64,000 nt of DNA, from positions 17,533 through 81,532 of the IMG/VR virus record IMGVR_UViG_3300008448_000036; one strand, 5' to 3'. This document shows, piece by piece, positions 12,820 to 52,977 of this stretch. Source of the DNA: a virus. Every line of letters begins with the position of its first letter. Position 1 is the first letter of the stretch. The notes beneath the pieces are model-generated. The model ran no database searches and was not told the origin of the DNA. It saw only the letters and a program-made list of their open reading frames with translations. A program made the translations under genes and the position numbers.

Positions 12820-13848
12820 TTATTTAACAAAAGCCCTTATATTATTCATCAAACTAAAAAATGCTGTTTTATACTGGGAAGGGTCGCCTGTTACATGTTT
12901 CTTTTTTAGTAATGCAGTTACAATATCTTTTAGATGTTGAGCATCAACCTCACCAGTGTATCCAGCTTTTTTAAGCGCAGCTAATAATTCTGCTTTAGAA
13001 TGAATAGCTGCTACTGTTTCTCTGCCAGCAAATTTTGCTGCTTCTTGCAAATATTGAGCACTTTGCTCTGCGGTCGCTTGTGTGGCATCAATTAAACTAC
13101 CCATTCTGTCTAGAACCTCTGGCGATTTTAGAACCGCATCTGATTTTAAATGTTCATGCATGGCAGTAAACATATTATTAAATTCTGTCATATCTGACAC
13201 ATCAAATGTTTTCTTTGATCTTATAAATGCATCTAGTTTTTCTACCATCTGAGGAGAAAGATCTACTCCCATTTTATGCATAGCGGCTTTATTATGTAGT
13301 AAGTTTAGCATCGCTTGAGAATCCGATGTTAATCTAACCTTTTCTCCATAATCGCTATAAACAACATCAGCTTTTGCAGTTCCAACCATAGAATTATATA
13401 CTAAATATGCTATAGCTGCCCAAAAAGCCACTTTAACAACCAGTGCAACTATACTATAAAGAGTTGGATAATTTTGTTTAAATTTTTCAACTAAACTAAA
13501 GACTTTTTGTATTAAGCCAAAGACAGCACCTGCACCCTTAATAGCTAATTGTAGCACTTTAATGCCCATTTCGTTAATTTTATTAACGACTGCATCTTTT
13601 ATTCCCTTTAACGCTCCAACAGCTTTTGTTAGGATTCCTTCATTTATAAATTTTAAATCATTTTCTATAGATTCTGCTAATATCTTAATATATTCTTCTC
13701 TTGAAATTCTGTTTAATGATAATTCTTCATTTAGAACATCTAACTTGAAAGAGCCAAATTTTGTTTCTAACAATAAATCAGTAGATTTTTTTTCTACATC
13801 ATTTGAAAAATTTCTCCAATTTTCCATGATAAGCTGCATATCTCTCAT
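12820..13848 (-). CDS. Candidate internal virion protein with one membrane-like segment
   Basis: The 342-residue protein starts MRDMQLIMENWRNFSND. NWRNF is also found near the N-terminus of the Nudix-fusion protein at 40791-42029, and I recall similar leaders in marine T4-like phages, where they could act as capsid-targeting tags. LLLE|T (residues 25-28) and VLNE|E fit (L/I)xE cleavage sites. Residues 70-135 are helical, and about 128-152 (IVALVVKVAFWAAIAYLVYN) form one strong hydrophobic segment. The rest is soluble and helical. It has its own terminator and start region between metabolic genes, so it may be expressed late. Function unknown. Confidence 0.6.
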   Translation of the reverse strand: MRDMQLIMENWRNFSNDVEKKSTDLLLETKFGSFKLDVLNEELSLNRISREEYIKILAESIENDLKFINEGILTKAVGALKGIKDAVVNKINEMGIKVLQLAIKGAGAVFGLIQKVFSLVEKFKQNYPTLYSIVALVVKVAFWAAIAYLVYNSMVGTAKADVVYSDYGEKVRLTSDSQAMLNLLHNKAAMHKMGVDLSPQMVEKLDAFIRSKKTFDVSDMTEFNNMFTAMHEHLKSDAVLKSPEVLDRMGSLIDATQATAEQSAQYLQEAAKFAGRETVAAIHSKAELLAALKKAGYTGEVDAQHLKDIVTALLKKKHVTGDPSQYKTAFFSLMNNIRAFVK

Positions 13849-40790: not shown

Positions 40791-42029
40791 TTATACTCCC
40801 AATTTATCTATAGCATCTTGAATAATTTGATTATGATCAAAAGCTAATTTGGTTGATAAGGCTTTTTCTACTGAAACCCATCCCGCTTCTTCTGCGTCAT
40901 CTCTTCCCGCTACTTTTTGATTAATATCTTCCGGTAATAAAACTGCAAATGCAGTAGTTCTTGACCAAGATTCTTCGTTATCTCTAGGATCCCTATTATT
41001 TCCTTCGTATTTTCCAACTTGGATCATCGATCTATTTAAAGAAGGAATATATAAACCAGTTTCTTCTGTTAATTCTCTAAAAGCTGCTTGTCTAGCAGAC
41101 TCTCTATCATCTTTCCATTGTTTTCCTTTGGGCTGATTTGTGTCATGAAAACCACCAGGTAATGCATAAAATCCTGGATACGCTTTACTTGAGGTATTTC
41201 TTTTTATTAGTAATATCTTTAGAGTATCGTCAAATTTTTTAAATACAGCTATATCGACAGTTGGATTAGCACCTGGTCTCCAGAATGGCTGTTCATCACT
41301 TCCCCAATATTCTACAGGTTTAGATATTTGACCATATGATCTATTCATATACCTTCCAATTAATTCGTAGGAAGAAGGGACTAAAAATACTGCCTGTGAA
41401 GACTGTAAAATATGAATATTTGAACCTTTATCAACTACAGCATCGTATCCCATATCTCTTAAAATTTTATTCCATATAATAGTAGATCTTTTTGTATATT
41501 GACCAACTCTAGATTGATCTGTTTCTGCTATCGCTTGAGATACCCCCCAAATTTCTGATGCTTGATTGTCATATTTATAAAGATCTGCATTTTGTTTAAC
41601 ATCTTCTACAAACTCTTCAAAATTTTTTCCCACCTTCTTCTTTATACTCTTTTCATATACATCTTTTAAGAAGTTTATATCTTTTGAATAATTTGCATAA
41701 GACGATAAATTTAACACTCTATCTGTATTTAATCTTATTAGATTAACATATTTTCTATCATCTCCAAAAAAACGATCTCCAGATACCCAATCTTGCCATA
41801 AATCTTTTAAATTATAAGCATAAACGCCAATTGGAGTTGAAAATCTATTATTTGGGTTAACACCTATTTTTTCTAAATCTGTAAAACTGACAAAATAATT
41901 ATCATCATCAGAAAATCTTTCTAGCCTCTTTAAAATAGGGATATTTACATTCTCTGGCCTCTTTTTCTTTTCTGTAAGAAAATTTCTCCAATTAGAAAAT
42001 AAATCATAAACTTGTTTTTCTTTAGTCAT
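40791..42029 (-). CDS. Possible ADP-ribosyltransferase-like domain fused to Nudix hydrolase
   Basis: The C-terminal part (residues 255-405) is a Nudix hydrolase: YALPGGFHD, then ESARQAAFRELTEETGL, with Glu310, Arg318, Glu319, Glu322 and Glu323 in the Nudix box. NNRDPRDNEESWSRTTAF resembles ADP-ribose/NAD-type Nudix enzymes. Residues 42-225 (YFVSFTDLEKIGVNP, TPIGVYAYNL, LRDMGYDAVVDKGS, SSQAVFLVPSSYE) look like a phage domain resembling the ADP-ribosyltransferase fold, but I cannot confirm it. The start, MTKEKQVYDLFSNWRNFLTE, ends in LTE, a prohead-protease-like site. A packaged, injected effector like T4 Alt is possible. Confidence 0.7.
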   Translation of the reverse strand: MTKEKQVYDLFSNWRNFLTEKKKRPENVNIPILKRLERFSDDDNYFVSFTDLEKIGVNPNNRFSTPIGVYAYNLKDLWQDWVSGDRFFGDDRKYVNLIRLNTDRVLNLSSYANYSKDINFLKDVYEKSIKKKVGKNFEEFVEDVKQNADLYKYDNQASEIWGVSQAIAETDQSRVGQYTKRSTIIWNKILRDMGYDAVVDKGSNIHILQSSQAVFLVPSSYELIGRYMNRSYGQISKPVEYWGSDEQPFWRPGANPTVDIAVFKKFDDTLKILLIKRNTSSKAYPGFYALPGGFHDTNQPKGKQWKDDRESARQAAFRELTEETGLYIPSLNRSMIQVGKYEGNNRDPRDNEESWSRTTAFAVLLPEDINQKVAGRDDAEEAGWVSVEKALSTKLAFDHNQIIQDAIDKLGV

Positions 42030-42032
42030 TTT

Positions 42033-43304
42033 TTAACCTACAAATATTAAGTTTGGAATAAAAGTGTTAACTTTCTGAGCGTCTTCTGCTATCTTAGCGT
42101 TGTCTTCACCGAGTTTAGCATAAGTCATCTCCGCTAGTTGAGTTTTTAATTCTTCTCTTAAATCTTTTTGTTCCTCTTTACCTTCTGCAATTAATTTATC
42201 GCCATTTAAAGTTACGCTTTCTCCTGGAATTGGTATAGTACCAAATTTACTTCTAACTTGTCCTAGCATTTCTTTGGAGATAGCTAAGGCAAATCTACGG
42301 ATCCATTGTTTTCCAATCGAATTAATTTTATCATATGGTAAGTTTTCAAATGGTAAAGTATTCATATTATTGATTCCATCTACATTAGTAGTAGAATTAC
42401 TCTCTCCAGAATCCCAACCATTTTGCTCTATAGTAAATTCAAACCAAAAACGATTTGCACTGGATGCCTGTGGTACTGGAAATAATCTAAGGACGTTATT
42501 TCTTAGTTGATATGACCAGTCGCTAACTCTAGTTTTTATTGCATCTTTATAAGCCATGGCCTGTAATTTATTTTGCCACACTGGAATTATCTCAAATGTA
42601 CTGTCATCTGCATATTGTCCATAAGTTGAAAGATTTCCTACTACGTTTAATCCTCCGAAATATCCATAAAAATTCCAAGATGCTCCAGCTGTTTTATAAT
42701 ACACTTTTCGTATATTTATACTTTTTCCCTCAATATCCCATCCATATTCATCAGCAGAAGAACTTACTGCATTTATTAGATCATAGTCTTGCTGCCCAGG
42801 ATTTATATCAAAAGAAGCAGAATATATTGGCTGACCGCTGTTTAGTAATGCCTCTGTTGCTGTAAATAATCCAACATTTTTTGCATATCCTAAACTAAAT
42901 TTTGGTAATTTTAGGCTGATATTATCGGGTAAATCTGAACCAGTTAATTGACCATTGTTATCAAATGTACCCGTAGCTTGACCTATCAAAAATGGTAATG
43001 CATTTTTAGATTGATGTAAGTTTATTAAATAAGAGTATTCTAAACATGCTTCTTCATACGCAGCATGTACTTGTGTTTCCACTAACTCAATATCTAATAT
43101 GTCTCCACCTAGTTTTTTATATACATACGATACCTGTTCGGCAGATCCACTTTTATATAAACTAATCTGAGAAGAATTCCAATAATCAGAATTTACATAA
43201 ATGCCAAAAGGAAGTGTTTGTGAAGTTACATTTGAAATACTACCAGTAGATGGTAAAATTACTTTACTCATCATTGATACTGGTGTTAAAGTTGGTAATG
43301 ACAT
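42033..43304 (-). CDS. Neck/head-completion protein
   Basis: The 423-residue protein starts SMMSKVILPSTGSISNV and contains YVYKKLGGDILDIELVE, followed by EEACLEYSYLINLHQSKNAL, a helical segment conserved in connector-type proteins of marine T4-like phages. It lies after the capsid gene and its terminator and before the Nudix fusion. The Tyr/Asn-rich middle is probably beta-structured. A role in joining head and tail is likely; the exact T4 counterpart (gp13 or gp14) is not assigned. Confidence 0.6.
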   Translation of the reverse strand: MSLPTLTPVSMMSKVILPSTGSISNVTSQTLPFGIYVNSDYWNSSQISLYKSGSAEQVSYVYKKLGGDILDIELVETQVHAAYEEACLEYSYLINLHQSKNALPFLIGQATGTFDNNGQLTGSDLPDNISLKLPKFSLGYAKNVGLFTATEALLNSGQPIYSASFDINPGQQDYDLINAVSSSADEYGWDIEGKSINIRKVYYKTAGASWNFYGYFGGLNVVGNLSTYGQYADDSTFEIIPVWQNKLQAMAYKDAIKTRVSDWSYQLRNNVLRLFPVPQASSANRFWFEFTIEQNGWDSGESNSTTNVDGINNMNTLPFENLPYDKINSIGKQWIRRFALAISKEMLGQVRSKFGTIPIPGESVTLNGDKLIAEGKEEQKDLREELKTQLAEMTYAKLGEDNAKIAEDAQKVNTFIPNLIFVG

Positions 43305-43421: not shown

Positions 43422-45221
43422 TTAGCCTTGTAGATCTTGTACAACAACTAGGCCGTACATGTCTGGACGAACCATTGCTTTACCATAACGAGTCATAACA
43501 GCTTTGCGTGGTGCAAAAGTGTTTGGATCGAAGATGGTTGGGGTGCTTTGTAGTGGTACATATGGAGCATAAACATAACCACTTTCTAGGAAGCTTCCAC
43601 CTTTACGTCCTACTAAGATTACGTTACGTAGGAAGTATGGATGAACAATGATATCCCATTTCTTGTTTAGATCACCTACTTTAACAGCACCTACTGAACC
43701 TTTTTCATCAGTTGCAGTTACTGAAGCGCGGAATCCAGAAGTAAATTCTAGGATGTTTGCAACTTCTGGTCCGCAGACTAAGAAGTTAGCACCACCACGT
43801 AGAGTTTTACGGTGGATAGCTGCTGATACGTCGTTGATTGTTTCAACTAGGGTTTCATACCACATTGAAACGTTACCGGTGAAGTCTGGTGGTCCTGCAT
43901 ATGAATTAGCAGTACCAACTTCGGCACCAGAAGAACGATCTAAGAATTTACCTGGACGGCGTGACCAGTATTTGACACCGGCAGTTTGTCCCTTAACTAG
44001 ATCGTTTAGAATTTCTTGATCAATTTCTAGACCAATTTGTTCTGATAACATAGAAGTTAATTCAACTTCAGCATCTAGGTTGTGGTAAGCATTTAGATCT
44101 TGACCTAATTCTGGAGTCCATGCAGCCTTTAGCTTACGAGTACGAGCTGTAATGCTGAATGAATCTACTTTTAGCTCTACTTCTGGGATTGCTGAAGAGC
44201 CTTCAAATGTCCATGGAGATGTACCAGCTAATGCACCTAGAGCACTTGCTCCTACGTTAGCTAGATTATCTTTAATTGGGAAGGTTACAACAGCTTGTGA
44301 AGCACCAGAGAATAGGTTTGCTTTTGTTGGAGAGGTAGAGGTAGTAGCTACTACGAATGATACTGTACCAGCTGCCTTGTTTACTGTTGTTAGACGGCGA
44401 ATTACTTTTGCACTTCCACCTAGAGCACCACCACCTGTGTAATCTCCAGCTGAATCAACTGCAGATGAACCAGTTACCAATGATGCAGCAAATACGTCTT
44501 GTTCTGCAATCAAAGCAGCGGCTCCACCGCTAAATCCTAGATCAGAAAGATTAAATGTTACAACAGATGCTGAAACATATGGAGTTGCATCTCCACCAGC
44601 TAATAGATCTGCATCATAACGAATTGCAGATAATTGAGCGGCAGTTGCATTTGCTCCCTTGCTTTCTAGATTGAATGGAGTTGCTACTGTTACGCTAGCA
44701 GTTGCAACTGATTTTGACCAACGTGATGTGTTGTAACCGTTAGCTAAGTTGTAGAAACCTTTTTCAGCATAATCTACACCATCTACACGTACACCACCAG
44801 TGATTTCAACACCTAGACGATCACCGAAGAAAGAGCTAGATGCTGGGAATACAACGTCACCTGTGCTACCTACGTTAGTTCCTCTACGGAAGTCCATAAA
44901 GAATACTAGACCTGATGGTAAGCTCATTGGTTGTACTGAAACTAGATCATTTGCGATCAAGCCAGCAAATACACGACGGACGATTGGGAACGCAACAGCG
45001 GCAAAGCCTTGTACGTCACCTGCAGCCATTGTGGTTGCTTCTTTTAGTAATTCAGCAGCTTGGTTTTCTAACAAGCGTGCCATTGTGCTCTTTTGACGAG
45101 CAGATGATAGTCCTTCTAATAGACCACTTTTTTCCCATTTAGAAACTAGAGTTTCAGTTTCTTTTAGTAGGTTTCTTTCTACCATACCTTCTGTTAATTT
45201 TTCTAATACATTATTACCCAT
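43422..45221 (-). CDS. Major capsid protein (gp23-like)
   Basis: The 599-residue capsid subunit has a helical N-terminal propeptide (LVSKWEKSGLLEGLSSARQK), then GDVQGFAAVAFPIVRRVFAG and LVSVQPMSLPSGLVFFMDFR, the gp23 landmark. LLKE|ATTMA at residue 61 fits the gp21-type cleavage consensus and the position of cleavage in T4 gp23 (after residue 65). The C-terminal RKAVMTRYGKAMVRPDMYG is also typical. The gene follows the core protein by 22 nt and ends before a strong terminator. Confidence 0.95.
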   Translation of the reverse strand: MGNNVLEKLTEGMVERNLLKETETLVSKWEKSGLLEGLSSARQKSTMARLLENQAAELLKEATTMAAGDVQGFAAVAFPIVRRVFAGLIANDLVSVQPMSLPSGLVFFMDFRRGTNVGSTGDVVFPASSSFFGDRLGVEITGGVRVDGVDYAEKGFYNLANGYNTSRWSKSVATASVTVATPFNLESKGANATAAQLSAIRYDADLLAGGDATPYVSASVVTFNLSDLGFSGGAAALIAEQDVFAASLVTGSSAVDSAGDYTGGGALGGSAKVIRRLTTVNKAAGTVSFVVATTSTSPTKANLFSGASQAVVTFPIKDNLANVGASALGALAGTSPWTFEGSSAIPEVELKVDSFSITARTRKLKAAWTPELGQDLNAYHNLDAEVELTSMLSEQIGLEIDQEILNDLVKGQTAGVKYWSRRPGKFLDRSSGAEVGTANSYAGPPDFTGNVSMWYETLVETINDVSAAIHRKTLRGGANFLVCGPEVANILEFTSGFRASVTATDEKGSVGAVKVGDLNKKWDIIVHPYFLRNVILVGRKGGSFLESGYVYAPYVPLQSTPTIFDPNTFAPRKAVMTRYGKAMVRPDMYGLVVVQDLQG

Positions 45222-52371: not shown

Positions 52372-52977
52372 TTATTTCTCCACTATATCATTTAATAATC
52401 TGTTTAACCTATCTGCTTTGCTAAATATTTCATTTATGTTACGTTTTTTATTCTCACTCATCATAAATGCACCGGGAGTACTTGGTTCTTGAACGAAATC
52501 AAAGCATATTAATTGAAAATCATCTTCTACTATTGTTTTACCATTATCTTTTCTAGTAGATCCCAAACCGCGAGAACTGATTCCTAATTTAATTCCACCC
52601 TTTACAAGAGATTTAAGAATATTACCAGATGGCGTATCTAGTACCTTTACTTTTCCCATAACAGAATTTCCTTCCCACCAGCACTTTGTTACAACATGAG
52701 AAACATTTTTTAAATTAATTATAGAATCATCAGGGTGATCTAACTCTCCTAACGCTCTATGATCTTCAACCATTTTTTGATAATTATCTATTTCTCTTTT
52801 TAGGATTTTTTCTGGATATATTCTTCCATTTCCATTCTGCTGATCGCATTTTTGCATAATGCCAGTAAGCATAACACCACCAGATTTAACAAATATTTTT
52901 TCTTCTTCTGTTAAAAGATCGGGACAGTATCCACCTTCACATAATTCATAAAATTCTCTTAATAGCTCTTTTGACAT
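52372..52977 (-). CDS. Prohead protease (gp21-like)
   Basis: This 201-residue serine protease of the T4 gp21 / U9-type fold cleaves scaffold and capsid propeptides after (L/I)xE. It shows GRIYPEKILKREIDNY, the HxD-type block LGELDHPDD and the catalytic-Ser region IKLGISSRGLGS, with the conserved FVQEPSTPGAFM end of the fold. Length matches T4 gp21 (212). Gene order with portal upstream is as in T4. Confidence 0.93.
   Translation of the reverse strand: MSKELLREFYELCEGGYCPDLLTEEEKIFVKSGGVMLTGIMQKCDQQNGNGRIYPEKILKREIDNYQKMVEDHRALGELDHPDDSIINLKNVSHVVTKCWWEGNSVMGKVKVLDTPSGNILKSLVKGGIKLGISSRGLGSTRKDNGKTIVEDDFQLICFDFVQEPSTPGAFMMSENKKRNINEIFSKADRLNRLLNDIVEK

What the first reader, a model, noticed from the sequence alone, without database searches (positions are those of the whole stretch)
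40791..42029. Nudix hydrolase fused to an ADP-ribosyltransferase-like domain in the head-tail gene block, with a possible packaging tag
Seen: a complete Nudix box (Glu310 to Glu323) follows a 200-residue domain and an N-terminal segment ending LTE, a protease-like site. The gene lies between neck genes. Known: T4 packages Alt, an ADP-ribosyltransferase with an N-terminal segment removed by gp21, and Nudix enzymes can cleave ADP-ribose or NAD products. Inference: a virion-injected enzyme that both adds and removes, or exhausts, ADP-ribose/NAD to take over or defend against host NAD-based immunity.
Basis: partly seen in the sequence, partly recalled or inferred. Interest (0 to 1): 0.8.

Follow-up and report, generated by a model that had tools for sequence, protein, structure and literature searches.

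The report
Tagged phage ART-fold–Nudix enzyme
A large T4-like phage encodes a two-part protein, one part shaped like an ADP-ribosyltransferase and one an ADP-ribose-cutting Nudix enzyme, behind a short tag that probably loads it into the virus head so that it enters the bacterium with the DNA; it belongs to a widespread but unannotated family of such tagged phage proteins.

Summary
ORF 40791-42029(-), 412 aa, carries a significant Nudix domain (residues 258-405; Pfam 1.1e-12; best fold match NrtR with ADP-ribose), a ~200-residue N-terminal domain, and an LTE|K site after residue 20.

The N-terminal domain has no Pfam, PHROG or NCBIfam model. One DNA motif found at least 120 stretches of relatives in uncultured viral contigs, and none in 84,980 prokaryote species. 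An AlphaFold2 model (pLDDT 91) matches ART-PolyVal proteins, a cyanophage ejectosome protein and, weakly, NADase and PARP ART domains, not neck proteins. The catalytic triad is atypical: S/T-Y-Q instead of H-Y-D or R-S-E. Both close Nudix-fused members also replace a near-invariant Glu by Gln.

Capsid targeting is well supported: L/I-x-E sites are conserved family-wide, the phage has its own gp21-type protease, and its WR(N/K)F N-terminal tag recurs on three unrelated proteins of the same phage. A 50%-identical relative shares a different tag with two adjacent genes beside the head genes.

Best reading: a head-packaged, injected enzyme acting on NAD/ADP-ribose compounds. Whether the ART-fold half is a NADase, a transferase or only a binder is open. 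New variant of a known kind.

The parts
40791..42029 (-). 412-aa ART-fold-Nudix protein (stop codon included)
41970..42029 (-). residues 1-20, predicted capsid-targeting propeptide (LFSNWRNFLTE), predicted gp21-type cleavage after E20
   Evidence: L/I-x-E rule from PMC9026906; tag shared with three unrelated proteins of the same phage; PHROG 13235 weak match to residues 6-30
41334..41897 (-). residues 45-232, ART-fold domain; candidate site residues S48, Y70, H206, Q209, Q212
40815..41258 (-). residues 258-405, Nudix domain of ADP-ribose type
41052..41171 (-). residues 287-326, extended Nudix box (GG 292-293 ... E310-x7-RELTEETG)
42033..43304 (-). upstream neighbour, Ad2-type head-tail adaptor
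   Evidence: PHROG 211
43422..45221 (-). major capsid protein Gp23
   Evidence: PF07068 5.6e-71
52372..52977 (-). head maturation protease (gp21 type), the presumed processor of the tag
   Evidence: PHROG 207 2e-56
12820..13848 (-). 342-aa protein with the same N-terminal tag (LIMENWRNF) and a hydrophobic segment; predicted co-packaged

Best explanation
A virion-carried effector. Residues 1-20 target it into the prohead core; the phage's gp21-type protease cuts after E20; the mature protein is ejected with the DNA. In the host the ART-fold domain binds and most likely cleaves NAD+ or a related ADP-ribosyl compound (the Gln at the catalytic-acid position resembles NAD glycohydrolases more than transferases), and the Nudix domain splits ADP-ribose or ADP-ribose derivatives into AMP and a ribose phosphate. 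Net effect: removal of NAD-derived immune signals, or of NAD-derived products, in the first minutes of infection. Shown by computation: Nudix type, ART fold, shared tag, site motif, gene context. Inferred: packaging, injection, substrates, purpose.
For: Nudix; best fold matches are ADP-ribose enzymes or sensors (NrtR with ADP-ribose, TRPM2 chanzyme, NadM). ART fold: model pLDDT 91; PDB best hit is a cyanophage pre-ejectosome protein (1.4e-5), then weak ART-fold hits, NatT NADase and PARPs (E 0.3 or above); BFVD hits labelled ART-PolyVal at 4e-6, 2e-5 and 1e-4. Tag: 48 of 63 members picked without using that position have L/I two residues before the conserved Glu; 57 of 100 against 14% of 544 other ORFs have the site in the first 28 residues; tag sharing with other ORFs of the same locus exceeds permutations (12 pairs scoring 40 or more, permutation mean 1, maximum 4); three consecutive genes in L043 share MKSK(D/N)xxLLExAY beside portal, gp21 and MCP; in this phage WRNF occurs three times in 68,298 ORF residues, always at residues 10-14, and a WRKF variant sits at residue 11 of a fourth protein, with unrelated bodies. 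Gln at the catalytic position with NADase activity has precedent in AfNADase (PMC7955114). A second, separately built fusion of this domain to a Nudix domain exists in L028.
Against: No experiment. ART assignment rests on structure; profile-profile match to ART-PolyVal is weak (E 0.065, 37 columns). Catalytic residues are non-canonical, and the near-invariant Glu at 209 is Gln in both close Nudix-fused members, so the ART half may be inactive. The Nudix substrate is inferred; Nudix enzymes are versatile. LxE is a short motif. Some tag-sharing pairs are divergent relatives, not unrelated proteins.
Confidence: 0.55

Rival explanations
1. The ART-fold half is a pseudo-enzyme used as a ligand-binding or delivery module; only the Nudix half is catalytic, and the protein is simply a packaged ADP-ribose-signal hydrolase.
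For: E209 replaced by Gln in both close Nudix-fused members although 75 of 78 rows keep Glu; the closest solved structure is an ejectosome component, fitting a delivery role.
Against: Q212, H206, D200 and Y72, which the search pattern did not fix, stay near-invariant, which argues for a working site; window and L043 keep them.
Confidence: 0.25
2. A true mono-ADP-ribosyltransferase that marks a host protein or RNA, as T4 Alt does, with the Nudix half trimming or reversing the mark.
For: ART fold and T4-like context; ART-PolyVal enzymes, several with similar tags, occur in the same phages.
Against: Neither the R-S-E nor the H-Y-D triad is present; no sequence relation to Alt.
Confidence: 0.15
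3. An unpackaged late protein: the N-terminus is an ordinary helix and the gene only happens to sit between structural genes.
Against: Tag recurrence on unrelated proteins in the same genome, three tagged genes in a row in L043, family-wide L/I-x-E.
Confidence: 0.1

Closest known systems
T4 Alt and internal proteins IPI-III (capsid-targeted, gp21-processed)
   Same: Short N-terminal propeptide ending L/I-x-E, one tag type on unrelated cargo, gp21-type protease present, T4-like head genes
   Different: No sequence similarity to Alt; different catalytic residues; fused Nudix; propeptide sequence differs
ART-PolyVal (PF18760) of phage polyvalent proteins
   Same: Fold (BFVD E 4e-6), phage origin, often tagged N-termini, LGYDG...VF.P core
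   Different: Not recognised by Pfam; S/T-Y-Q in place of H-Y-D; extra GINPxSxYxTPxG loop; weak profile match
NrtR/NadM-type ADP-ribose Nudix domains
   Same: Box, RDPR loop, best sequence and fold matches
   Different: Insertion in the box; no DNA-binding or adenylyltransferase domain; far below the curated equivalog cut-offs
[quoted passage not shown] KptA-Nudix in Bodo saltans virus (PMC7824862, PMC9503650)
   Same: NAD/ADP-ribose-making or -binding domain joined to a Nudix degrader; packaging predicted for phage ART and Nudix proteins
   Different: Unannotated ART-fold clade, explicit capsid-targeting tag, different fold partners
TNT/AfNADase NAD glycohydrolases
   Same: Gln at the ART catalytic-acid position (PMC7955114)
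   Different: No homology shown; other triad positions differ (R-F-Q there)

Membership tests
Nudix hydrolase | Nudix fold and box GX5EX7REUXEEXGU | tested here: met
   Pfam 1.1e-12; E310-x7-RELTEETG complete, with an insertion between the Gly and E310
Nudix hydrolase | Hydrolysis of a nucleoside diphosphate linked to X | not testable with these tools
   needs an enzyme assay
ART superfamily | Split beta-sheet ART fold | tested here: met
   Fold searches, (viral library significant; PDB ART hits weak)
ART superfamily | Canonical R-S-E or H-Y-E/D catalytic residues | tested here: not met
   S48-Y70-Q212; Y70 was fixed by the search pattern
ART-PolyVal PF18760 | Match to the Pfam model | tested here: not met
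   profile-profile E 0.065
T4 Alt family | Sequence homology to Alt | tested here: not met
Capsid-targeted (CTS) cargo of T4-like phages | N-terminal propeptide of about 7-20 residues ending L/I-x-E, shared between cargo proteins, gp21-type protease encoded | tested here: met
Capsid-targeted (CTS) cargo of T4-like phages | Presence of the processed protein in the head | not testable with these tools
   needs virion mass spectrometry

The most novel reading that the evidence does not exclude
An unrecognised, widespread ART-fold clade with an S/T-Y-Q site is a tagged, head-packaged NAD-cleaving effector family of uncultured T4-like and jumbo phages; in one branch it is joined to a Nudix enzyme so that one injected molecule turns NAD+ or an NAD-derived immune signal into AMP, alongside co-packaged 2H-phosphoesterase-like and kinase-like proteins bearing the same tag.
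Probability: 0.3. Interest if true: 0.8.

Novelty: new variant of a known kind. Interest (0 to 1): 0.6.

Why it matters
If right, phages of the T4 kind use one short tag to load a set of NAD- and nucleotide-acting enzymes into the head, so they reach the host before any phage gene is expressed. That makes a testable case for pre-emptive counter-defence. It also gives a sequence handle (the tag plus the GINPxSxYxTPxG ... DxGxGIIHxxEPxQAVFF signature) for finding injected effectors that current family libraries miss.

Tried and rejected
Pfam, PHROGs, NCBIfam, PADLOC and PDB sequence searches of the N-terminal domain: no usable hit. T4 Alt homology: none. Phormidium Pf-WMP3 gp26, a structural hit: no sequence match. 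Prokaryote contigs: no match to the fusion linker or to the family motif. 2H-like protein in PDB, Pfam and phage records: no match, so that label rests on its two His-x-Thr motifs only. Invariance of N58, P59, F/Y63, T65, P66, G68, V/I69 and Y70 is not counted as evidence, because the search pattern required these residues. Consensus promoters near the gene are no more frequent than in shuffles.

Full report
Observation. The ORF at 40791-42029 on the minus strand encodes 412 residues. Residues 258-405 are a Nudix domain (Pfam 1.1e-12; PHROG 1198 6e-17). The same insertion is present in the relative L043 and in a standalone Nudix protein of the huge phage LR745206. The closest curated and solved relatives act on or sense ADP-ribose: NrtR, NadM, TRPM2 chanzyme.

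N-terminal domain. Residues 24-232 have no model in Pfam, PHROGs or NCBIfam. tblastn gave one weak relative in a 735-kb uncultured phage. None was found among 84,980 prokaryote species with a slightly longer form of the pattern, and named phage records hold almost none, one partial and degenerate relative being in the cultivated Alishewanella phage Slickus01. Because the pattern fixed N58, P59, F/Y63, T65, P66, G68, V/I69 and Y70, their conservation is by construction; Y72, G194, D200, I205, H206, E209 and Q212 are independent and near-invariant.

Fold. AlphaFold2 on 78 sequences gives pLDDT 91 and pTM 0.88. Against PDB the only strong hit is the cyanophage A4 pre-ejectosome protein (1.4e-5); below significance the list holds NatT, an NAD phosphorylase toxin of the ART-fold RES type (PMC11535050), and PARP catalytic domains. 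Against viral models there are 18 matches at or below 1e-3, three of them named ART-PolyVal or PolyVal ADP-ribosyltransferase. No neck family appears. By eye, Q212 falls six residues before the proline of the xxVFxP element, where ART-PolyVal carries its acidic residue (inference); Y70 fits the strand-2 Tyr and S/T48 replaces the strand-1 His of the H-Y-D triad described for polyvalent ARTs (PMC5512222). A Gln at this position is used by the NAD glycohydrolase AfNADase, where its mutation kills activity (PMC7955114). Only the window protein, L043 and one misaligned row lack the Glu at 209.

Tag. T4 gp21 cuts after L/I-x-E and internal proteins bear 10-19-residue capsid-targeting propeptides (PMC9026906). 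Family N-termini look like M(K/R)xFxxxLxE|ARRNP. Among 63 members chosen without using that position, 48 have L or I two residues before the Glu. The site occurs in the first 28 residues in 57 of 100 members against 76 of 544 other ORFs of the same loci. Tags are shared with other ORFs in the same locus more than permutation allows, although some of those ORFs are divergent relatives. In L043 the ART-Nudix gene is the middle one of three consecutive genes that begin MKSK(D/N)xxLLExAY, flanked by portal, gp21 and MCP. In the window's own phage (G001 is the same virus, 100% over 13.1 kb) the tag (I/L)(M/F)x(N/G)WR(N/K)F begins four proteins: this one, a 342-aa protein with a hydrophobic segment, a 339-aa P-loop kinase-like protein (GPPSVGKST), and a 156-aa protein with two His-x-Thr motifs like 2H phosphoesterases; outside the tag their bodies show no meaningful similarity. 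The phage encodes a gp21-type protease. Elsewhere in the family, gp21-, capsid- or portal-type genes lie in the short flanks of several loci.

Fusion. The same architecture as in the window was found only in L043, 50% identical over 396 residues. A third protein, L028, joins the family domain to repeats, a canonical Nudix (6e-14) and a YHGT-type ART-like C-terminus, so association with Nudix seems to have arisen more than once. Other members carry ankyrin or pentapeptide repeats.

Interpretation. Packaging and injection are likely (about 0.8), ART fold likely (about 0.85), an ADP-ribose-type Nudix likely (about 0.8); what the ART-fold half does is open. The mechanism I commit to is NAD or ADP-ribosyl cleavage or binding followed by Nudix hydrolysis to AMP, to pre-empt NAD-based immunity. 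Reviews have already predicted packaged ART and Nudix proteins and NAD-domain/Nudix fusions as toggles or signal degraders in large phages (PMC9503650, PMC7824862), so the idea is not new; the clade, its site residues and the explicit tag evidence are.

Noticed in passing
L136 1078-1548(-); G001:C1:134571-135038: 156-aa protein MSLDKLMEGWRNFLKED... with HHMTIV and PHITAM, looks like a 2H phosphoesterase bearing the same tag; lies just outside the window.
   Followed up: partly
G001:C1:128733-129749 (L145): 339-aa P-loop kinase-like protein (GPPSVGKST, NRDDI) with tag MKNMKIIMENWRKF.
   Followed up: partly
L028 2292-5594(-): 1223-aa polyvalent protein: family ART-fold domain, repeats, canonical Nudix, and a second YHGT-type ART-like domain.
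   Followed up: partly
L150, L153, L154, L161: ART-PolyVal or YHG-type proteins in the same phages that also begin with LxE-type or similar tags (MKFKQWLIIES, MKPFKQFITEA, MKTSSWRKFLLEQ).
   Followed up: no
L024, L032, L048, L083: Tandem or multiple paralogues of the family in one phage record (3 to 5 copies).
   Followed up: no
L117, L069: ORFs with tag-like N-termini leading into FTFGRFNPPTxGHEKL, a nucleotidyltransferase signature (MKSYKKFMTEQ..., MQKFFEFMEAR...).
   Followed up: no
window 43403-43370(-): Strong terminator-like hairpin (15 pairs) just after the major capsid gene, before the adaptor/ART-Nudix genes.
   Followed up: no
L167 5836-6633 and 7835-8329: Cultivated Alishewanella phage Slickus01 has a degenerate family member and a 2H-like protein beside neck genes; a possible laboratory system.
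   Followed up: partly
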